Of a stretch of DNA of 32,285 nucleotides, positions 16,832-26,541 are shown piece by piece (positions within the stretch are counted from its first letter, which is position 1; every line of letters starts with the position of its first letter). The notes under the pieces are model-generated. The model had not been told where the DNA came from. It searched no databases and saw nothing but the letters and a program-made list of their open reading frames with translations. Both the position numbers and the translations under genes were made by a program. Origin of the DNA: Flavobacteriales bacterium. Its GTDB lineage: Bacteria > Bacteroidota > Bacteroidia > Flavobacteriales > Flavobacteriaceae. The stretch spans positions 1 to 32,285 of the forward strand of contig QIJL01000567.1 in the NCBI GenBank assembly GCA_003232435.1, in the 5' to 3' direction.

Positions 16832-18118
16832 TCAATCATCAACAGCGGCAAAGACCATTTGGCGAAATTTCCAACTGGTTTGACTTCCCGTATTTCCCTG
16901 GGTTTGCTTCATGAGAACCCCGATTATTTTCTCCTTTGGATCGGCAAAATACTGGGTGCTAAAGTAACCGCCCCAGTCGAACGTGCCTTCGCTACCTTCC
17001 CCGCCTGCATCCTGCCCTTCTTCAGTAACTACCCCAAAGGCAAGTCCGTAGTGCTTTTTACCTTCTCCGAATTTTTCTTCGGTCTGATTTCCCATGAGGC
17101 TTTGAACGGTCGTTCTGCTTAAAATGCGTTTTCCATTCAGTTCGCCGTTGTTCAGGTACATCTGTAAAAAGGTAGCATAGTCCTTTGCCGTGCTAGAGAG
17201 TCCGGCACCACCTGAGAAAAATCGTTTCGCGCCTTTTTTCGGATAGTCGGTATCGTAAAAAGTGACCGGGTAATTTTTCCATTTGCCATCCTTTTTATGC
17301 TGTACGGCCACCAAACGGTCGTGTTTTTCCTTCGGAAGATAAAACCAGGTATCGTTCATGCCCAAGGGGTCAAATATTCGCTTTCGAAGGAACTCGTCAA
17401 AGGGCATACCTGAAACCACCTCTATGAAATAACCAAGAACGTCAAGCCCTTCGCTATAGGTAAACTTTTCCCCTGGATTATGATGAAGGGGCAACTTTGC
17501 CAATTTCTTGACACTTTCTTCAATGGAAATATTTTCGGTGGTAAACAGATCGGTAATGCCTGCTTTGGCATAGATTTTTTTGAAACGTTCGTCACCGTCG
17601 ATAACCCCATAGCCTAAACCGGAAGTATGTGTGATCAGGTCGCGGATGGTTATTTGGGCCTCCGCGGGTTTGGTCGTGTAGGTAGAATCTGTCTCAATGA
17701 ACGTATCCAATATTTGCGCTTCGCCGAATTCGGGAATGTATTTCGAAATGGGGTCGTCCATGCGAAATCTACCTTCCTCCCAAAGCATCATGACCGCTGT
17801 TGAAGTGATGGCCTTGGTCTGGGAGGCGATTCTGAAAATGGAATTTTCGTCAAGCTTTTCGCCTTTTTCGTTGGCCGACCCATGAGCCTTGTGATAAACG
17901 ATTTTTCCGTTTCGGGCGATTAAAGCTACTACGCCGGGTACTTGGTTTTCTTGAATTGCGTTTTGTAGCATCGCATCGATCCGATCGATCCGTTCTTGTG
18001 ACATGCCGACTTCTGCCGGTAGTGCCTTGGAGAGAGGTGGCGAGGTTTTTACGGATTTTGTTTGGGCGGTAAGGGTCAGAAAGGCTATGAGGAAAAGGGT
18101 TGTTAGGGTTGTTTTCAT
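16832..18118 (-). CDS. Secreted serine hydrolase of the beta-lactamase/esterase (class C-like) family
   Basis: A 428-residue protein with a signal peptide (MKTTLTTLFLIAFLTLTAQT). The SxxK nucleophile motif is SQTK (Ser99-Lys102 in FRIASQTKAITSTAVM) and the second motif is the Tyr-Ser pair in KFTYSEGLDVLG. The third motif region reads FDWGGYFSTQYF where penicillin-binding proteins have KTG/HTG, as is usual for the EstB-type esterases of this family. It is predicted to act in the periplasm or at the cell surface on an ester or D-amino acid amide; resistance to beta-lactams should not be assumed. No partner genes are obvious. Confidence 0.85.
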   Translation of the reverse strand: MKTTLTTLFLIAFLTLTAQTKSVKTSPPLSKALPAEVGMSQERIDRIDAMLQNAIQENQVPGVVALIARNGKIVYHKAHGSANEKGEKLDENSIFRIASQTKAITSTAVMMLWEEGRFRMDDPISKYIPEFGEAQILDTFIETDSTYTTKPAEAQITIRDLITHTSGLGYGVIDGDERFKKIYAKAGITDLFTTENISIEESVKKLAKLPLHHNPGEKFTYSEGLDVLGYFIEVVSGMPFDEFLRKRIFDPLGMNDTWFYLPKEKHDRLVAVQHKKDGKWKNYPVTFYDTDYPKKGAKRFFSGGAGLSSTAKDYATFLQMYLNNGELNGKRILSRTTVQSLMGNQTEEKFGEGKKHYGLAFGVVTEEGQDAGGEGSEGTFDWGGYFSTQYFADPKEKIIGVLMKQTQGNTGSQTSWKFRQMVFAAVDD

Positions 18119-18399
18119 TTTCTATGAGTGGATTGATTGTTATTTGATTTTTGCCGTAAAGCTTAATCGTGGATTTCGCTAACCTCATGGTCTAATCTAT
18201 GATGGTCTTTTGAACCCCAATTAGCTTCTTCGCCGTCTTCAAGTTCAGTAATGAATTTCTCGATTTTATGGTAACTATATACTTGTTTACACTATGATTA
18301 CATTCATTAAAAACATTTTTAAATGAAAAGATGAATTCGATAAGAGATATGGATTCATGTTAAGAAACAAAATAGTTTCCAATAAATCTTATCACGATG
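18119..18399. other. Intergenic stretch with a possible coding remnant
   Basis: On the minus strand an open stretch ending at 18163 reads HKIEKFITELEDGEEANWGSKDHHRLDHEVSEIHD. It has no start codon and a stop immediately upstream, so it is at best a gene remnant next to the accessory region. No other feature is seen. Confidence 0.3.
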
Positions 18400-18834
18400 T
18401 TAAGACTTTTCATCTTCAGAATTTTCAGGAAAAAGGTAAGGCATGATTTTAGCCTTATTATTTGGTAGAAATTCGTCGATAAATCTTAACTGTTCTTCTT
18501 TTTGTTTTCCTAAACAGTTTTCAAGCAAATAAGCCGTAGAGTGGAACAACTCTAGATGTTCTTTACCCATTACTTCCTTATAATATTCTGATATTTCATC
18601 AATTTTTTCTTTTGTCACCTCATGCATTATATCTCTAACCTTACCGTCATCAGCTATTAAATTTGAAGCTTTACCTAAAACAGTTTCTTCGTTCATCTTC
18701 ACGTATTCTTTAACTTTTTTAATATCGAAAATCTCAAAAAAAGTTTTCACGCTATTAAGAACTTTATTTTGCATAAAAAACAAAGCGACTAATATTGCCA
18801 GTACAACGGAGTTTACAATTTCAAGGTATTCCAT
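18400..18834 (-). CDS. Small membrane-anchored protein of unknown function
   Basis: A 144-residue protein with one N-terminal membrane helix (IVNSVVLAILVALFFMQ, about 6-22). A charged, mostly helical cytoplasmic or periplasmic region follows (KKVKEYVKMNEETVLGKASNLIADDG, EVTKEKIDEISEYYKEVMGKEHLELF). Low GC content compared with the pigment genes suggests acquired DNA. It is divergent from the IS1595-type transposase gene. No known family is recognised. Confidence 0.65.
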   Translation of the reverse strand: MEYLEIVNSVVLAILVALFFMQNKVLNSVKTFFEIFDIKKVKEYVKMNEETVLGKASNLIADDGKVRDIMHEVTKEKIDEISEYYKEVMGKEHLELFHSTAYLLENCLGKQKEEQLRFIDEFLPNNKAKIMPYLFPENSEDEKS

Positions 18835-18906
18835 TAAGTGTTTTTTTGGTTATTTGATAAATATATAAAATTCCTACACAAACTAAATAATTCACAAAGT
18901 AGACGT

Positions 18907-18943
18907 TAATTACACTAAATAATTAAAATTGGTGTAATTAAAG
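18907..18943. repeat. Inverted repeat upstream of the IS1595-type transposase
   Basis: TTAATTACACTAA and TTGGTGTAATTAA form arms with one mismatched pair, separated by about ten AT-rich bases. It lies 30 bases before the transposase ATG and could be part of the element's left end or an operator. A related TTAGTGTAA occurs at about 22760, beyond the RhuM gene. Confidence 0.5.
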
Positions 18944-19738
18944 TATTATCTTAGCTATGTAATATACTAGCAATGATAAACCAAGACTTCAATTCCATTT
19001 TAGAACTAATCCAAGCCTTTCCTGACCAACAGTCTTGCATTGACCATTTGGAAGCTTTAAGGTGGAACGGAAACGTTGTAAGTCCTTTTGATGCCGATTC
19101 TAAAGTCTATAGCTGTAAAGGCAATAAGTACAAGTGCAAGAACACAGGAAAGTACTTCAATGTAAAGACTGATACCATTTTCGACAACACTAAGATTGAA
19201 TTACAAAAATGGTTTCTTGCCATTTGGTTAGTTACTTCACACAAGAAAGGAATTTCATCTTTACAATTAGGGAGAGACTTAAATATTACTCAAAAATCTG
19301 CGTGGTTCATGTTGAGCCGTATTCGTCAATGTTTTGGCTTAGACAATGATTCTAAACTTGACAACGAAGTTGAAGCAGACGAAACCTTTGTAGGTGGAAA
19401 GAACAAAAACAGACACGCCAACAAAAAGACTTACGGCAGTTCTGACGACAAAGCACCAGTTTTAGGGATGGTAGAGCGCAATGGAAAAGTTATCGCTAAG
19501 AAAGTGCCTAATACGACTTACGAAACCCTATCAACCGAAATACTAAGAAGTGTAAATGAAACCGCTAAATTATATACCGATGAATATTCATCTTACAAGA
19601 AACTAAAGCGAGTTTACGACCACCAAACAGTAAAGCACCACAGACGCCAATACGTTAAAGGTAGAGTGCATACAAATACAATAGAGGGTTTTTGGTCATT
19701 ACTAAAGCGTGGTATCTTTGGTATCTATCACTTTACTT

Positions 19739-21039
19739 CACTAGTGGGTACTAAAAAATATAACAAGTTCTTTGAAATTCCTTGTATATCGTATTTACGG
19801 CAATTTTTGGTAGCGTGACGATTTGAATCGGAAAATAGGATTTTTGTTTAAAAATCCCATGAACCAAGGTAAATATGTCTTCGCCCAGATTACCGAATTC
19901 CTTCCGCGAAGGGTTTTCGACCGTATCGTAAAGGAACATCACGGCAACGGATACGTCAGGAGTTTCACCTGTTGGAACCATGCTCTGCATGGTCTTTGGG
20001 CAACTGACCTCAAGGGACGGTATGCGGGACCTGATTTTGAGCCTAGAGGCACACCGCCCCAAATACTACCATTTGGGGTTCGGGACATCCGTTACCAGAC
20101 GTAACCTTGGCAAGGCCAACGAAAAGAGAAGCCACAGGATCTTCGAGGAGTTCGCCTACGCCCTGATCGCCGAGGCCAGGAAAAGTTGTTACCGTGACGA
20201 TTTCGAGATCGATGTGGATGGCAACGTGCATGCCCTTGACTCTACGACGATAGACCTTTGCCTGAGCGTGTTCTGGTGGGCGGAGTTCCGAAAGGCCAAG
20301 GGAGGGATAAAGCTCCATGTGCTTTATGACGTAAAGACATCGATCCCCGGCTTCCTCCATATATCCAATGCGAGCCTCCACGATGTCAACGTGTTGGACA
20401 TACTTGCGTACGAGGCCGGAAGCTTTTACGTGATGGACAAGGCGTATATCGATTTTGCCCGGCTGTACGAGATACACCTGCAAAAGGCCTTTTTCGTTAC
20501 CCGTGCCAAGAAGAACATGCGCTTCAAAAGGATGTACTCGACAAGGACCGACAGGGTCAAAGGCATAAAATACGACCAGATAGGAAAACTAGAAGGACGC
20601 CATGCCAAAAAGAGCTATCCCGAAAAATTCCGGCGCATAAAGTATTTTGACGGTGAGGCCGAAAAGGAATTCATTTTCCTGACCAACAATACGGATCACA
20701 ATGCCACCGAGATAGCGATGCTGTACAAGAAACGCTGGGAGGTGGAACTGTTCTTCAAATGGATGAAACAACATCTGAGAATAAAATCATTTTGGGGGAT
20801 CAGCATCAACGCGGTCAAGATTCAGATCTATTGTGCAATCATAGCCTATTGCCTTGTCGCCATAATCGGGAACAAACTCAAATCAAAGCGTAGAATCTAC
20901 GAAATATTACAGATATTGAGCATATCGCTACTCGACAAAACCCCTGTAAGAGAGATACTTACAGATTACGATTACAAAGATGTCAAAGAACTAGAATCTA
21001 AACAATTGAAAATCAATGGGTTTTAAGTACCCACTAATG
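19739..21039 (+). mobile_element. Complete IS4-family insertion sequence, 1301 bp
   Basis: The left end CACTAGTGGGTACT (19739-19752) and the right end, reverse complement CATTAGTGGGTACT (21026-21039), match at 13 of 14 bases. The element is flanked by direct repeats ACTTTACTT at 19730-19738 and 21040-21048, a 9-bp target duplication. The GC content is higher than that of the interrupted gene. The transposase stop codon overlaps the right inverted repeat by one base. Confidence 0.92.
19859..21026 (+). pseudogene. IS4-family transposase, frameshifted near the start
   Basis: The N-terminus starts at ATG 19859: MNQGKYVFAQITEFLPRRVFDRIVKEHHGNGYVRSFTCWNH. It goes out of frame near 19978-19983, and the next frame continues as LCMVFGQLTSRDGMRDLILSLEAHRPKYYHLGFGTSVTRRN to the end. 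Relatives read CWNxLLCMVFGQL through this point, so a small indel (such as loss of two bases or gain of one) has split the gene. The IS4 signature Y-(2)-R-(3)-E-(6)-K is intact as YKKRWEVELFFKWMK. The acidic residues are in ALDSTTIDL and VMDKAYIDF. The long second ORF (348 codons) has an internal ATG but lacks the N-terminal domain, so the copy is probably inactive. Confidence 0.85.
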
Positions 21040-21180
21040 ACTTTACTTCTAAAAAACACTTACAGTTGTACGTTGACGAATTTGTTGTTAGATACAATTC
21101 AAGAAAACACCCTGAAGCAATGAGATTTAATTTATTTTTGAAAAATACAGAACACAGAATCACTTATAAGGAATTGATAA

Positions 21181-22317
21181 ATGGGTAATTTAGAAGAGCA
21201 AAAAAACTTTTTGTTCTATTCAACGCATGATGGAACAACTAATATTCAGGTTATTTTGGATGATGATACCGTTTGGGTAACTCAATCTAGCATGGCTGAA
21301 ATTTTCGACACCACAAAACAGAATATTAGCCTACACTTATCCAATATTTACAAAGAGGGAGAACTCAATAAATTTTCAACTGTCAAGGAAATCTTGACAG
21401 TTCAAAAAGAGGGAGGTCGGGACGTTCAGCGAACCATTGAGTTTTACAATCTTGACGCTATAATTTCTGTAGGGTATAGAGTAAATTCCCCTAAAGCCAC
21501 TTTGTTTAGGATTTGGGCTACTAGTATTATAAAAGAGTATTTGATAAAGGGGTTCGCTCTGGACGATGATAGACTTAAACAAGGTAAGACTTTGTTTGAT
21601 AAGGATTACTTCGATGAATTACTCGAAAGAATTCGTGAAATCCGTGCGTCAGAAAGGCGTTTTTATAAGAAAATAACCGACATATATTCTTTAGCTATTG
21701 ACTACGATTCTAAAGCTAAAATATCTCAAACATTCTTTGCTACGGTACAGAATAAGTTGGAATATGCAATAACTCATCATACAGCTTCGGAAATAGTAAA
21801 ACTTAGGGCAAATTCAAAATTGCCAAACATGGGTTTAACAAGTTGGAAAAATGAGAAAAGGGGAGGTAAGATTTTAAAATCAGATGTTTCCGTTGCTAAA
21901 AACTATTTCAACCGCGATGAAATATCAGAGTTAAATATTTTGGTCAACATGCTGCTTGATTTTGCGGAATTACAAGCAAAAAGAAATCAAGGGATGACTA
22001 TGAAGGATTGGGTTGAAAGACTAGATGCCTTCATTAAATTCAATGATTACGATTTACTAAAGGATGCTGGTAAAGTTAGGGCTACCGCGGCAAAGTCTTT
22101 TGCAGAAAAGGAATTTTCCAAATTTAGAATAGTTCAAGACGTAGAATTTAAATCTGACTTTGATAAATTTGTTGAACAATCAAAATCTGGAAAATTACCT
22201 AAAGAAAATAAGCACAATCTTCCGCCTTGGCCTGATGATGAGAAGGAAGAATTCTCTACGTTCAATAAGAAACTTAAAAAAGGATTAGAATGGAATCCTA
22301 AGAAAAATAAAAAATAA
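21181..22317 (+). CDS. RhuM-family protein
   Basis: A 378-residue protein. The N-terminal two thirds match the RhuM family (named after a Salmonella pathogenicity-island gene): IQVILDDDTVWVTQSSMAEIFDTTKQNISLHLSNIYKEGEL looks like a DNA-binding start, followed by EFYNLDAIISVGYRVNSPKATLFRIWATSIIKEYLIKGFALDDDRL. The C-terminal part (about 200-378) is rich in charged residues and ends with a basic tail. Its ATG overlaps the stop of the IS1595-type transposase by 8 bases (ATGGGTAA), so the two were once a single translational unit. The biochemical role of RhuM is not established. Low GC content like the transposase supports co-transfer. Confidence 0.85.
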   Translation: MGNLEEQKNFLFYSTHDGTTNIQVILDDDTVWVTQSSMAEIFDTTKQNISLHLSNIYKEGELNKFSTVKEILTVQKEGGRDVQRTIEFYNLDAIISVGYRVNSPKATLFRIWATSIIKEYLIKGFALDDDRLKQGKTLFDKDYFDELLERIREIRASERRFYKKITDIYSLAIDYDSKAKISQTFFATVQNKLEYAITHHTASEIVKLRANSKLPNMGLTSWKNEKRGGKILKSDVSVAKNYFNRDEISELNILVNMLLDFAELQAKRNQGMTMKDWVERLDAFIKFNDYDLLKDAGKVRATAAKSFAEKEFSKFRIVQDVEFKSDFDKFVEQSKSGKLPKENKHNLPPWPDDEKEEFSTFNKKLKKGLEWNPKKNKK

Positions 22318-22318
22318 C

Positions 22319-22550
22319 ATGAATCCGAAAATTGATATACTAACGGAAGCCGTTGTAAAAATGGAAAATCTATTTGAAGTCTATAATCCAGACGATGTAG
22401 AATCGGTAAGTATGCTAAATTATTCAGTAAATTCAAATGAATTGATGTTGCACACGGCTTAAAGAAGCAAACCACAACGAAGAATTCATTCCCATATTTG
22501 AAGCCTTAGAAAAAAGAGTTGCAGCTGTGAAGGCTAAAGCTAATCTTTAA
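22319..22550 (+). pseudogene. Small broken ORF downstream of the RhuM gene
   Basis: The first frame, ATG 22319 to stop 22460-22462, reads MNPKIDILTEAVVKMENLFEVYNPDDVESVSML. A second frame continues as LKEANHNEEFIPIFEALEKRVAAVKAKANL and stops at 22548-22550. Joined at about 22455 they make one small helical protein of about 76 residues. It starts two bases after the RhuM stop, so it was probably its operon partner before the frameshift. Family unknown. Confidence 0.55.
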
Positions 22551-22790
22551 AAATAGCACATCGGTTTTGACCGTTTCGTCTTGGTTACTGCCCTAAAAAA
22601 GCGAACATTGACATTGTGCATACGCTCCTTGAAACACAAGAATACCTTTAGCGGACTTTTTCCCTTGCTCTGCGTTACTGAATTAGCCGTAACGTAACCA
22701 AAAAGGTTGAACTTGTAAAAAAACAGGATGGCTCTACATCCGAAATCCGACTTTTCTCATTAGTGTAAAGTAGTATATAGTTTCGTGAAT
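22551..22790. other. Gene-poor stretch with degraded coding-like sequence
   Basis: Short open stretches such as FVLVTALKKRTLTLCIRSLKHKNTFSGLFP and, in another frame, PKKANIDIVHTLLETQEYL suggest a decayed gene, but neither has a start codon and both stop quickly. It ends with TTAGTGTAA at about 22760, partly matching the inverted repeat upstream of the IS1595-type transposase, so the end of that element may lie here. Confidence 0.35.
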
Positions 22791-22800
22791 ATCAATGATA

Positions 22801-22840
22801 TAAACGTTCATAAACGAAAACAAACGTTTATGAACGTTTA
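22801..22840. repeat. Perfect 16-bp inverted repeat rich in AAACG words
   Basis: TAAACGTTCATAAACG (22801-22816) and CGTTTATGAACGTTTA (22825-22840) are exact reverse complements around an 8-base A-rich spacer. With the following ACAAACG there are five AAACG/CGTTT words in about 48 bases. It has no T-run and lies about 145 bases before ssb, so an operator or recombination site is more likely than a terminator. Confidence 0.8.
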
Positions 22841-22944
22841 CAAACGAAAGTAATTATTTTCCGACCGAATAAAAGTTGAGGCAGGCTCTAGGTTTGTGGT
22901 GTCGGAGGATAGTCCGCCGATAGTATCAATTGTTTAACCATGAG

Positions 22945-22964
22945 TTTCCCGCCGTTGCGGGAAA
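22945..22964 (+). promoter_or_regulatory. Hairpin in the ssb leader
   Basis: TTTCCCGC-CGTT-GCGGGAAA forms a perfect 8-bp stem 21 bases before the ssb ATG. It would lie in the 5' untranslated RNA. The role is unknown; autoregulation by SSB or RNA stabilisation are options. Confidence 0.45.
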
Positions 22965-22985
22965 GAAATTAAAAAATCATTTATT

Positions 22986-23318
22986 ATGAACGCACTTAAA
23001 AACAAAGTACAGTTGATCGGTAACTTGGGCCAAGACCCTGAAATCGTAACCTTAGAAAATGGTAGCAAGCTCGCCAAGTTTACCATTGCCACAAACGACT
23101 TTTACAAGAACGCCCAAGGCGAAAAAGTAGAGGACACCCAATGGCACAATGTGGTCGCTTGGGACAAGCTCGCCGATATCGCCGAAAGTTATCTGGCCAA
23201 GGGCAAACAAATTGCCGTCGAAGGCAAGTTGACGCACCGCTCTTACGAAACGAAGGAAGGCGAAAAACGCTACTTTACCGAAGTCAGATGTAACGAGCTT
23301 TTGATGTTGGGAAAGTAG
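22986..23318 (+). CDS. ssb: Single-stranded DNA-binding protein, short form
   Basis: An OB-fold SSB of 110 residues: MNALKNKVQLIGNLGQDPEIVTLENGSKLAKFTIATND, then DTQWHNVVAWDKLADIAESYLAKGKQIAVEGKLTHRSYETKEGEKRYFTEV. The protein ends at CNELLMLGK, directly after the OB fold. The Gly/Pro-rich linker and acidic tip (usually ending DDDIPF or alike) that recruit repair proteins are absent. Short SSBs of this kind occur in Bacteroidetes alongside the full-length housekeeping SSB. It is in line with the ORF6N genes and recQ on the same strand, but with gaps, so one operon is not shown. Confidence 0.9.
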   Translation: MNALKNKVQLIGNLGQDPEIVTLENGSKLAKFTIATNDFYKNAQGEKVEDTQWHNVVAWDKLADIAESYLAKGKQIAVEGKLTHRSYETKEGEKRYFTEVRCNELLMLGK

Positions 23319-23327
23319 AGCCCTCCT

Positions 23328-23405
23328 TAATCTCCCCAAAGGGGGAGACCTGTTAAGGGTAGAAAGATGTGAACCGTCTGTCAGTAAAAACAGATGGACG
23401 GTCCA
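23328..23405 (+). terminator. Hairpins downstream of ssb
   Basis: TCTCCCC-AAA-GGGGGAGA near 23331-23348 and ACCGTCTGT...ACAGATGGACGGT (23373-23402), followed by a T-rich CCATTTTATAT, lie within 90 bases of the ssb stop. Either may end the ssb transcript. The first resembles a common flavobacterial dispersed repeat. Confidence 0.45.
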
Positions 23406-23530
23406 TTTTATATAGCATGTCGGTCGAACATGTCAGTCCGAGCGCCCGCCTGAATGACAAAGTCGGGCAGGCAGTCGAAGACCATACCGGCACAGAGATC
23501 AATCAATACCTAGCCAAAGTACTTTTAAAA

Positions 23531-23863
23531 ATGAACAAAGAGATAATCATTTCCGATGAGATTGTTCACGGCAAGATTTATCATATCAGAGGGCAAAAAG
23601 TTATGCTTGACAGAGATTTAGCAGAACTCTACGGAGTCGAAACCAAGTATTTGAAACGTCAGGTGCGAAGAAATATCGAACGTTTCCCCGAAGATTTTAT
23701 GTTTCAGCTTGAAAAAGAAGAACTTGAAAATTGGAGGAGACAAATTGGCACCTCCAATTCTTCCGATAACTTGAGGAGCCAAAATAGCACCTCAAGTTGG
23801 GGAGGCACCAGATATGCATCGATAGCGTTTGCAGAAAATGAATTCAAAAATTTAAGAGTGTAA
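23531..23863 (+). pseudogene. ORF6N-domain protein, truncated copy
   Basis: The real start is probably ATG 23531 (MNKEIIISDEIVHGKIYHIRGQKVMLDRDLAELYGVETKYLKRQVRRNIERFPEDFMFQL). The upstream part of the track ORF (from 23369) runs through a repeat-like region and lacks similarity to the paralogue. The ORF6N domain is nearly complete, but after GTRYASIAF the sequence diverges and stops (AENEFKNLRV), where the next gene continues with FTEQGVTMLSCILNSD. So the C-terminal two fifths are missing. ORF6N domains are DNA-binding-like modules common in phage and toxin-related genes. It may still make a short protein. Confidence 0.65.
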
Positions 23864-23875
23864 ATAATTTAGGAA

Positions 23876-24406
23876 ATGAGCAAGGAAATAACCATCTCCG
23901 AAGAAATAATCCATGGCAAGATATATTATATGCGGAGTCAAAAAGTAATGTTGGATAGGGATTTGGCCGAACTGTATGGCGTTGAAACAAAAGTTTTAAA
24001 ACAAGCTGTACGAAGAAACCTGAAACGGTTTCCCAAAGACTTTATGTTCGAGATGAGCAAAGTAGAGCTGACCCATTGGAGGTCACAATTTGTGACCTCC
24101 GATAACGACAAGTTCGGACTGCGATATGCACCATTTTGTTTTACCGAGCAGGGCGTAACTATGTTATCTTGCATTTTGAATAGTGATCGGGCAATTGCAG
24201 TAAACATTCGGATCATTAGAGTATTTGCAAAAATGAGAGAAGTGTTTGCAGATACCTTGAACTTAAAATTTGAAATCGAGGAAATCAAAAAGCAACTCTC
24301 AAACCATGGCAAGAACATAGAACTGGTTTTTGATTATCTGGATGAGCTGATCAAGAAGAAAGAAAATAACGAACCAAGAAAACGAATAGGCTACAAATCA
24401 CAATAG
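23876..24406 (+). CDS. ORF6N-domain-containing protein
   Basis: A 176-residue protein with the ORF6N domain over the first 100 residues (IIHGKIYYMRSQKVMLDRDLAELYGVETKVLKQAVRRNLKRFPKDFMFEMS, then RYAPFCFTEQGVTMLSCILNSDRAIAVNIRIIRVF). A coiled-coil-like C-terminus follows (KFEIEEIKKQLSNHGKNIELVFDYLDELIKKKE). It starts 12 bases after the truncated paralogue, with clear sequence similarity over the first 60 residues; the pair arose by tandem duplication. The function is unknown, probably DNA binding. Confidence 0.85.
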   Translation: MSKEITISEEIIHGKIYYMRSQKVMLDRDLAELYGVETKVLKQAVRRNLKRFPKDFMFEMSKVELTHWRSQFVTSDNDKFGLRYAPFCFTEQGVTMLSCILNSDRAIAVNIRIIRVFAKMREVFADTLNLKFEIEEIKKQLSNHGKNIELVFDYLDELIKKKENNEPRKRIGYKSQ

Positions 24407-24449
24407 CCGCACATAAGTATATTGAACAACAATCCATATTTTTACAACA

Positions 24450-26267
24450 ATGACATCCGTAACGACTACACACCAAGATTTACTCCCCTTATTAAAAACC
24501 CATTTTGGCTACGACTCCTTTTTACCGAACCAATTGGCGGTGATCGAGGATGTGCTGTCAAAAAAAGATGTATTGGCCATCATGCCTACGGGCGGCGGAA
24601 AATCACTCTGCTTCCAATTGCCTGCTTTGGCTATGGAAGGCACCACCATTGTGGTATCGCCTTTGATCGCATTGATGAAAGATCAAGTAGATGTACTTCG
24701 TGCCAACGGAATCGTCGCTGCCTACTACAACAGTTCACAATCCCCGGAAACACAACAGGAAATTTTTCAACAGTTAAAAAAAGGCGAACTAAAATTGTTC
24801 TATGTCGCTCCGGAGAGCCTAGGTTCGTTCGGCAGCATTTTCAAAGAAATCGAAATCAGTCTGTTCGCCATCGACGAGGCGCATTGCATCTCGTCTTGGG
24901 GACATGATTTTCGCCCGGCCTATACCCAATTGGGAAGTTTGAAAGAGCGGTTTCCCGAGATACCCGTTTTGGCCCTGACCGCTACAGCGGATAAAACTAC
25001 GCAAGACGATATTGCGGATCAATTGGCGATTCCGTACGCCGAAAGGCATTTGGCCTCTTTCAATCGACCGAATCTGTATTTGGAAGTCCGTCCCGCCCAA
25101 AACCGCATCAAACAGATTGTTGATTTTATTGGACACCGACCCGACGAAAGCGGTATCATCTATTGTTTGAGCCGGAAGAATACCGAGAAAATCGCCGAAC
25201 GGTTGCGGGATTCCGGCTTCTCGGCCAAGGCCTACCATGCGGGTATGTCAACACAGGAACGTACACAGACCCAAGAAGATTTTGTCAACGACCGCATACC
25301 CATTATCGTGGCGACCATCGCCTTCGGTATGGGTATCGATAAAAGCAATGTGCGCTGGGTAATTCATTATAACCTGCCCAAAAATGTCGAGGGCTATTAT
25401 CAGGAAATCGGCCGTAGCGGTCGAGATGGGTTACCTGCCCATACGCTGCTTTTTTACAGTTTTGGCGATGTAGCCCAGTTGCGCAGGTTTATTTCGGAAA
25501 GTGATAATGCCGAGGTCGAATATGCCAAACTCGAACGTATGCAGCAGTTCGCCGAGGCCTTGAGTTGCCGCCGCATCGCTTTGCTGAACTATTTTGGCGA
25601 GAATCTGACCGAAAATTGTGGCAATTGCGATATCTGTAACCGTCCGCCCAAATATTTTGATGGTACGCTGATGACCCAAAAAATCTGTTCCGCAGTGGCG
25701 CGGTTAAAAGAATCGGAACCTATGGGTACCGTGGTCGATGTGCTCAGGGGCGCGCAGAATGCGAATATTTACGAAAAAGGATTGCAAAGTATAAAGACTT
25801 ACGGTGCGGTAAAAGATGTTTCTTGGCAGGATCTGCAGCAATACGTAATTCAACTTTTGAACCAAGGGGTGCTTGAAATCAATTTTAGGGAAGGCTCCCG
25901 AATCGCACTGACCCCCTTGGCGAAACAAATTTTGTTCGAAAGAAAAAAAGTACAGCTCGCCATTTTGGTCAAGGAAAAACCGAAGACAAAACGGGAACGG
26001 AGAGCTACGATCGAAAAAACAGAATTGTTCGAAAAACTCCGTGCGCTGCGCTATCAGATTGCCACCAAAGAAAATGTACCCGCTTATGTGGTCTTCGGCG
26101 ATGCCAGTTTGAAGGATATGGAAGCGAAACTCCCTGCCAACGAACATGAATTTCTGGAAGTTTCCGGAGTAGGTAAGGCGAAGTTGGAAAAATATGCCGC
26201 CGTTTTTCTAAAGGCGATTGCCGAGCATCAAGCTTCCATGAAACATGAAACTTTCGCTCACAAGTAA
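24450..26267 (+). CDS. recQ: ATP-dependent DNA helicase RecQ
   Basis: A 605-residue helicase of full bacterial length. Motif 0 FLPNQLAVIEDVL, Walker A MPTGGGKS (45-52), DEAH box AIDEAHCISSWGHDFRPAY and motif VI region QEIGRSGRDG are present. The zinc site CRRIALLNYFGENLTENCGNCDIC follows, then the RQC winged helix and a C-terminal HRDC-like domain (LRALRYQIATKENVPAYVVFGDASL). It unwinds recombination and stalled-fork intermediates. It starts 44 bases after the ORF6N gene on the same strand. Confidence 0.95.
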   Translation: MTSVTTTHQDLLPLLKTHFGYDSFLPNQLAVIEDVLSKKDVLAIMPTGGGKSLCFQLPALAMEGTTIVVSPLIALMKDQVDVLRANGIVAAYYNSSQSPETQQEIFQQLKKGELKLFYVAPESLGSFGSIFKEIEISLFAIDEAHCISSWGHDFRPAYTQLGSLKERFPEIPVLALTATADKTTQDDIADQLAIPYAERHLASFNRPNLYLEVRPAQNRIKQIVDFIGHRPDESGIIYCLSRKNTEKIAERLRDSGFSAKAYHAGMSTQERTQTQEDFVNDRIPIIVATIAFGMGIDKSNVRWVIHYNLPKNVEGYYQEIGRSGRDGLPAHTLLFYSFGDVAQLRRFISESDNAEVEYAKLERMQQFAEALSCRRIALLNYFGENLTENCGNCDICNRPPKYFDGTLMTQKICSAVARLKESEPMGTVVDVLRGAQNANIYEKGLQSIKTYGAVKDVSWQDLQQYVIQLLNQGVLEINFREGSRIALTPLAKQILFERKKVQLAILVKEKPKTKRERRATIEKTELFEKLRALRYQIATKENVPAYVVFGDASLKDMEAKLPANEHEFLEVSGVGKAKLEKYAAVFLKAIAEHQASMKHETFAHK

Positions 26268-26347
26268 TCCCATATATGGTTCAAGAAAGGCTTGTCGGTC
26301 TCCAAAACCACTTTTAAACGTGCATTTATGCATTTTTAGGAATCTGA

Positions 26348-26456
26348 TCCCCTTCCTTCGGAGGGGAATGTCCCAACAAATGATAGTGGATAAATTTGAC
26401 ACCGAAAAAGCCTTTATCCCTCCCGATAGATTGGGACTAAAGGGAGGACTTTTTAT
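26348..26456 (+). terminator. Repeat hairpins downstream of recQ
   Basis: TCCCCTTCC-TTC-GGAGGGGA (26348-26367) and CCTCCC (26419-26424) pairing with GGGAGG (26442-26447), followed by ACTTTTTA, lie between recQ and the convergent nucleoside hydrolase gene. The second with its T-run is the better terminator candidate. The rest of the 274-base gap has no gene. Confidence 0.5.
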
Positions 26457-26541
26457 AGACTCTAGCCTCCCGACGCCTCGGGGTCAATCCCTTCAGGGCT
26501 TGGGCAAATAAAAACTGGCGGCTCTTTTGGGTAAATCCCTT

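What the first reader, a model, noticed from the sequence alone, without database searches (positions are those of the whole stretch)
22790..22860. Perfect 16-bp inverted repeat with clustered AAACG words
The two arms are exact and each carries an AACGTT core; five AAACG-type words lie within 48 bases and none is explained by a coding region. There is no T-run. It may be an operator, an iteron-like site or a recombinase core at the island border, upstream of ssb.
Basis: seen in the sequence. Interest (0 to 1): 0.5.

Follow-up and report, generated by a model that had tools for sequence, protein, structure and literature searches.

The report
Promoter-locked 10-bp repeats before ssb
The "inverted repeat" is really a row of five 10-base repeats that sits at a fixed distance upstream of the promoter of a small single-stranded-DNA-binding protein gene in many bacteria of the flavobacterium family, and its best candidate reader is an unstudied small zinc protein usually encoded next door.

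Summary
The sequence observation is right: TAAACGTTCATAAACG/CGTTTATGAACGTTTA (22801-22816, 22825-22840), intergenic, exact. But the inverted repeat is not the conserved thing. The five words are five direct repeats of NNNANAAACG with a 10-bp period (22797-22846). The same array lies upstream of the orthologous tail-less 110-aa ssb across Flavobacteriaceae. In 137 ssb upstreams, AAACG words are spaced 10, 20 or 30 bp and almost never otherwise; their distance to the -7 box is 41/51/61/71 bp, so the array is locked to the promoter. A 15-bp or longer perfect inverted repeat occurs in 2 of 118 arrays. The site is single-copy in its genome, not a recombinase core, not an SOS operator. It is most likely the operator of ssb. 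Best candidate binder: a 116-aa treble-clef zinc protein (ZnR1), divergent from ssb wherever the two are neighbours, co-occurring with ssb in 224 of 251 genomes (neither in 17). Eight genomes that keep this ssb but lack ZnR1 have missing or degenerate arrays. That ZnR1 binds, and activates, is inferred, not shown. Downstream, the ssb mRNA starts with a covarying hairpin plus a conserved leader, absent from Rfam. I found no published description of either.

The parts
22797..22846 (+). array of five 10-bp direct repeats (units 22797-22806, 22807-22816, 22817-22826, 22827-22836, 22837-22846), consensus TTTACAAACG
   Evidence: conserved in 118 of 137 distinct ssb upstreams
22801..22816 (+). left arm of the perfect 16-bp inverted repeat (species-specific by-product of the array)
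   Evidence: inverted repeats of 15 bp or more in only 2 of 118 arrays
22825..22840 (+). right arm of the perfect 16-bp inverted repeat
22864..22868 (+). ACCGA element, 29 bp before the TTTG of the -7 box (same spacing in 55 of 58 relatives that have the word)
22876..22878 (+). TTG of the probable -33 element, 17 bp before the TTTG of the -7 box (the commonest spacing in relatives)
   Evidence: inference from the flavobacterial promoter consensus
22889..22896 (+). TAGGTTTG, -7 box of the sigma-A type TAnnTTTG; predicted start of transcription about 22901
   Evidence: consensus and -12 to -5 position from PMC9723704
22901..22921 (+). 5'-terminal hairpin of the ssb mRNA leader (GTCGG...CCGAT)
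   Evidence: covariation in 32 distinct leaders
22921..22939 (+). conserved unpaired leader segment TAGTATCAATTGTTTAACC (family consensus TAGTATTAACTGTTTAAC)
   Evidence: consensus word found only before ssb in held loci
22986..23318 (+). ssb, 110 aa, single OB fold, no acidic C-terminal tail (ends NELLMLGK)
   Evidence: Pfam SSB E=7.5e-34
24450..26267 (+). recQ, directly after ssb in several relatives; here two ORF6N genes (23369-24406) lie between

Best explanation
The array is the cis-acting control site (operator) of the ssb promoter. A protein binds the 10-bp direct repeats cooperatively, one unit per helical turn on one face of the DNA, upstream of the -33/-7 promoter, and most likely activates ssb transcription. 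The most likely binder is ZnR1, a 116-aa protein with an N-terminal treble-clef zinc site and a basic helix. In this genome ZnR1 is encoded elsewhere (G000 contig C49:7705-8052), but in many relatives it is encoded divergently next to ssb. Shown by computation: the array, its period, its lock to the promoter, its conservation and the ZnR1 association. Inferred: protein binding (about 0.9), ZnR1 as the binder (about 0.5), activation rather than repression (about 0.65). The confidence given is for the chain up to 'operator read by ZnR1'.
For: Among 137 distinct ssb upstreams the AAACG-AAACG distances are 10 (108), 20 (83), 30 (14), 40 (2); off-phase 11 (1), 21 (2), 31 (3). In 64 upstreams with a defined leader, 136 of 148 AAACG words lie 41, 51, 61, 71, 81 or 91 bp before the -7 TTTG, and ACCGA lies at 29 bp in 55 of 58. 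The two-unit pattern in 251 family genomes gave 47 matches against 2 for the backward control, nearly all before ssb. ZnR1 and this ssb co-occur: both 224, neither 17, ZnR1 only 1, ssb only 9, of which one (G569) has ZnR1 at a contig edge. ZnR1 is divergent from ssb at every locus where ssb lies within the 8-kb flank. In 43 loci chosen by ZnR1 alone the array score has median 6.9; in 8 genomes with ssb but no ZnR1 it is 1.5-4.3, median 2.2, Mann-Whitney p=3e-5. Second ssb copies unlinked to ZnR1 lack arrays. A ZnR paralogue (about 33%) lies divergent from a tyrosine recombinase, with an AAACG array between them in G065.
Against: No binding or expression data. ZnR1 is often separated from ssb by other genes or lies elsewhere, as here, and then has no array of its own, so a simple autoregulated pair does not hold everywhere. 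ZnR1 has no recognised HTH; its fold has no significant PDB match. G005 and G035 have ZnR1 but no clear array. Two ZnR1-less genomes (G537, G522) keep weak partial arrays. Array loss could follow loss of a third, unseen regulator lost together with ZnR1. The p-value is not corrected for phylogeny.
Confidence: 0.55

Rival explanations
1. The array is the ssb operator, but it is read by another regulator (for example an OmpR/PhoB-type response regulator, which bind tandem direct repeats); ZnR1 is a functional partner of SSB, not its regulator.
For: Direct repeats one helical turn apart upstream of -35 regions are typical of OmpR/PhoB-type activators (own knowledge). ZnR1 resembles the zinc-binding part of HNH nucleases, which could mean a DNA-processing role. 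In some clades ZnR1 sits in unrelated gene neighbourhoods.
Against: Exact arrays occur about once per genome, which suits a dedicated regulator better than a global one. Arrays are lost or decayed where ZnR1 is absent.
Confidence: 0.35
2. SOS operator: the site is bound by the non-canonical LexA of Bacteroidetes.
For: ssb and recQ are reported as SOS genes in some Bacteroidetes (PMC8565304).
Against: The published motifs GGA-N5-TCC and CTAA-N5-TTAG occur in 0 of 137 ssb upstreams and not in this one.
Confidence: 0.03
3. Recombinase core, att site or end of the accessory island.
For: Transposase genes and a rhuM-like gene lie upstream (18973-22317), and homology to relatives begins near the array.
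Against: The array keeps fixed spacing to the ssb promoter in dozens of genera with different upstream genes. No second copy exists in the assembly and no recombinase gene is in the window near it.
Confidence: 0.02
4. Iterons of a plasmid or element replication origin.
For: Tandem repeats next to ssb.
Against: No rep gene nearby, chromosomal context (ssb-recQ, metG), lock to a promoter.
Confidence: 0.01

Closest known systems
Tandem direct-repeat operators of OmpR/PhoB-type activators
   Same: 10-11-bp head-to-tail units upstream of the -33/-35 element, several units in phase with the promoter (own knowledge)
   Different: Sequence differs; no response-regulator gene is linked; the best candidate binder is a zinc protein of another kind
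Non-canonical LexA/SOS operators of Bacteroidetes (PMC8565304)
   Same: Control of DNA-repair genes, ssb and recQ among them, in the same phylum
   Different: Palindromic GGA-N5-TCC or CTAA-N5-TTAG, both absent here
Competence SsbB of Bacillus/Streptococcus (PMC3128108)
   Same: A second single-stranded-DNA-binding protein beside the housekeeping one, under its own control
   Different: Here 110 aa with no acidic tip; no link to competence was tested
DUF2116 / zf-FCS treble-clef zinc domains (Pfam)
   Same: CxxC...FCSDxCR zinc site at the N-terminus of ZnR1
   Different: Scores below the Pfam cut-off; the basic helix and C-terminal beta part are unlike them
Flavo-1 RNA motif (mentioned in PMC9723704)
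   Same: A structured RNA motif of Flavobacteriaceae
   Different: No Rfam family matches the ssb leader

Membership tests
Promoter-upstream operator array (tandem direct repeats) | Units repeat head to tail with about one helical turn spacing | tested here: met
   Distances 10/20/30/40 bp, few off-phase
Promoter-upstream operator array (tandem direct repeats) | Fixed register to the promoter | tested here: met
   136 of 148 words at 41-91 bp, modulo 10 = 1, from the -7 TTTG
Promoter-upstream operator array (tandem direct repeats) | Bound by a regulator that changes transcription | not testable with these tools
   Needs gel shift and reporter assays
Palindromic (inverted-repeat) operator | Inverted symmetry conserved among orthologous promoters | tested here: not met
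   15 bp or more in 2 of 118 arrays; most have 4-8 bp
Bacteroidetes SOS (LexA-like) operator | GGA-N5-TCC or CTAA-N5-TTAG | tested here: not met
   0 of 137 upstreams
Tyrosine-recombinase core or att site | Site at the ends of a mobile element, or repeated at both ends | tested here: not met
   Single copy in the assembly, constant place before ssb
Replication-origin iterons | Adjacent rep gene | tested here: not met
   None among the Pfam-scanned ORFs around it
Dispersed repeat | Many genomic copies | tested here: not met
SsbB-type competence SSB | Second SSB beside the housekeeping one | tested here: met
   Housekeeping SSB (about 40% identity, longer frame) is in the same genomes
SsbB-type competence SSB | Induced during competence | not testable with these tools
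   No expression data
DUF2116 / zf-FCS (for ZnR1) | Score above Pfam gathering cut-off | tested here: not met
   19.2 against 26.8 bits for the first member

The most novel reading that the evidence does not exclude
ZnR1 founds a family of sequence-specific treble-clef zinc regulators that polymerise along helically phased 10-bp repeats. One branch controls ssb across Flavobacteriaceae and another (ZnR2) controls a tyrosine recombinase from its own short CG-containing repeats: a DNA-processing control circuit separate from SOS.
Probability: 0.4. Interest if true: 0.7.

Novelty: new variant of a known kind. Interest (0 to 1): 0.55.

Why it matters
Control of single-stranded-DNA handling in Flavobacteriaceae is known mainly through the recently found SOS system. 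This site points to a second, dedicated circuit with a defined operator, a strong candidate regulator of a family without a name, and a structured mRNA leader, all testable in culturable strains. If ZnR1 is the binder it would be a new kind of bacterial DNA-binding regulator.

Tried and rejected
Plasmid and phage collections: one weak plasmid match to ssb, none for phages. Rfam: nothing in 18000-26500. Looking for arrays in front of znr1 when it lies away from ssb: none. PDB by sequence and by fold: no significant match for ZnR1. Some order-wide hits (L094, L098, L100, L110, L111) are simple tandem repeats with identical or near-identical spacers and were set aside; L252, L268 and L273 matched the two-unit pattern with no ssb or recombinase nearby and were set aside as probable background. 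Natural-competence literature gave no link to this ssb. Searches for the repeat's letters and for ssb plus motif terms found no description.

Full report
What is there. The arms of the reported inverted repeat are exact, at 22801-22816 and 22825-22840, in the gap between a rhuM-like gene (ends 22317) and ssb (starts 22986). Read on the + strand, the stretch is five consecutive 10-mers ending in ACG: GATATAAACG TTCATAAACG AAAACAAACG TTTATGAACG TTTACAAACG (22797-22846). In shuffled windows the triple word is expected 0.13 times at up to 2 mismatches; 3 overlapping matches are found, all in this array.

It is not a dispersed repeat. In the 4.1-Mb assembly the 16-mer is found only here, and the exact triple repeat once.

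It is conserved, but as a direct repeat. A DNA search with 22540-23318 finds the homologous ssb in 36 of 60 relatives. The matches begin around the array and cover the leader and ssb. I collected 137 distinct upstream regions of this small ssb. AAACG words are 10, 20 or 30 bp apart (108, 83, 14 pairs), with 2 pairs at 40 and only 6 off-phase pairs within 40 bp. 118 of 137 score as arrays; a perfect inverted repeat of at least 15 bp is found in 2 of those 118. The inverted repeat in this window is therefore a by-product of units such as AAACGTTT, which is itself a palindrome.

It is locked to a promoter. Flavobacterial sigma-A promoters have a TAnnTTTG box at -12 to -5 (PMC9723704). Here it is TAGGTTTG at 22889-22896, with a TTG 17 bp before its TTTG. 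In 64 upstreams with a defined leader, 136 of 148 AAACG words lie at 41, 51, 61, 71, 81 or 91 bp before the TTTG, and ACCGA lies at 29 bp in 55 of 58. The window fits: 51, 71, 81 and 91 for its AAACG words (61 for GAACG) and 29 for ACCGA. Such phase-locking is expected of an operator whose protein must face RNA polymerase. The position upstream of -33 favours activation; this is inference.

What is controlled. In 251 family genomes the two-unit pattern gives 47 matches against 2 for the backward control. Nearly all lie 100-200 bp before the small ssb; the rest are a few before a tyrosine recombinase (G065, G138), one orphan array (G071) and three with no ssb or recombinase nearby. The small SSB is 110 aa, lacks the acidic tail and accompanies a longer housekeeping SSB in the same genomes. 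In several relatives recQ follows directly; here two ORF6N genes have come between.

Candidate reader. Some hits showed an unknown divergent gene. It encodes a 116-aa protein, ZnR1, with CxxC...FCSDxCR and a basic helix. Where ssb lies within the 8-kb flank of znr1, the two are divergent at every locus. In 251 genomes: both 224, neither 17, ZnR1 only 1, ssb only 9, one of which (G569) has ZnR1 cut by a contig edge. This leaves a natural experiment. In the 8 genomes with ssb but no ZnR1 (7 genera) the array is missing or decayed (scores 1.5-4.3), while in 43 loci picked only for having znr1 the median is 6.9. The two low scores among the 43 (L200, L204) both have a second, partial ssb copy. Several ZnR1-less genomes keep the -7 box or the leader, so the ssb is orthologous and only the array went. 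A paralogue, ZnR2, lies divergent from a tyrosine recombinase in eight of the searched genomes including this one (G000 C87), with its own short repeats between.

Structure. AlphaFold gives ZnR1 a mean pLDDT of 83. No PDB fold matches; the first 35-40 residues resemble zinc parts of phage HNH and NinG proteins. DNA binding is plausible but not shown.

The mRNA leader. From the predicted start (about 22901) the transcript begins with a hairpin. 60 of 64 leaders have a stem of 6 or more pairs against 4% of shuffles. On 32 distinct leaders 92% of cells pair, 7 of 8 pairs show changes on both sides, and sliding the partner destroys the signal; RNAalifold finds nearly the same helix. G-U pairs and varied stems point to RNA rather than a DNA operator. 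The tail AGTATTAACTGTTTAA is found 47 times in 1.86 Mb of held loci, always within 150 bp before ssb. Rfam has no match. Its function is unknown; a 5'-terminal stem commonly stabilises mRNA (own knowledge).

What it is not. SOS motifs of Bacteroidetes occur in 0 of 137 upstreams. Recombinase core, origin iterons and dispersed repeat fail their defining features (membership table).

Limits. The genome is an 84%-complete assembly with 6% contamination. Genomes are anonymous and share ancestry, and the Mann-Whitney value ignores that. The array score was my own weighting of TTTACAAACG. No experiment supports binding or the direction of control.

Noticed in passing
window 22901-22939: Covarying 5'-terminal hairpin and conserved TAGTATTAACTGTTTAAC leader of ssb mRNA, not in Rfam; a new cis-regulatory RNA candidate of Flavobacteriaceae.
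   Followed up: partly
G000:C87:467-1935 (L151); also L146, L148-L150, L152, L153, L158: Tyrosine recombinase of about 375 aa with an extra N-terminal region, divergent from a ZnR paralogue, with short TATACG-type or palindromic repeats between them.
   Followed up: partly
window 22944-22965: A GC-rich hairpin TTTCCCGCCGTTGCGGGAAA between the leader and the ssb start; relatives have different inserted hairpins at the same place (L198, L025).
   Followed up: no
window 23369-24406: Two ORF6N (phage anti-repressor-like) genes between ssb and recQ, which are adjacent in several relatives.
   Followed up: no
G000:C2:38804-39133 and C64:3-92: Further copies or fragments of the small ssb in the same assembly, C2 beside a second metG-like gene; may be contamination of the assembly.
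   Followed up: no
window 22540-22780: Non-coding remnant without an identified origin between the rhuM-like gene and the array.
   Followed up: no
G071:C8:662471-662497 (L058, L269): An intact three-unit array without ssb beside it; znr1 lies about 1.2 kb away behind an unknown 307-aa ORF.
   Followed up: no
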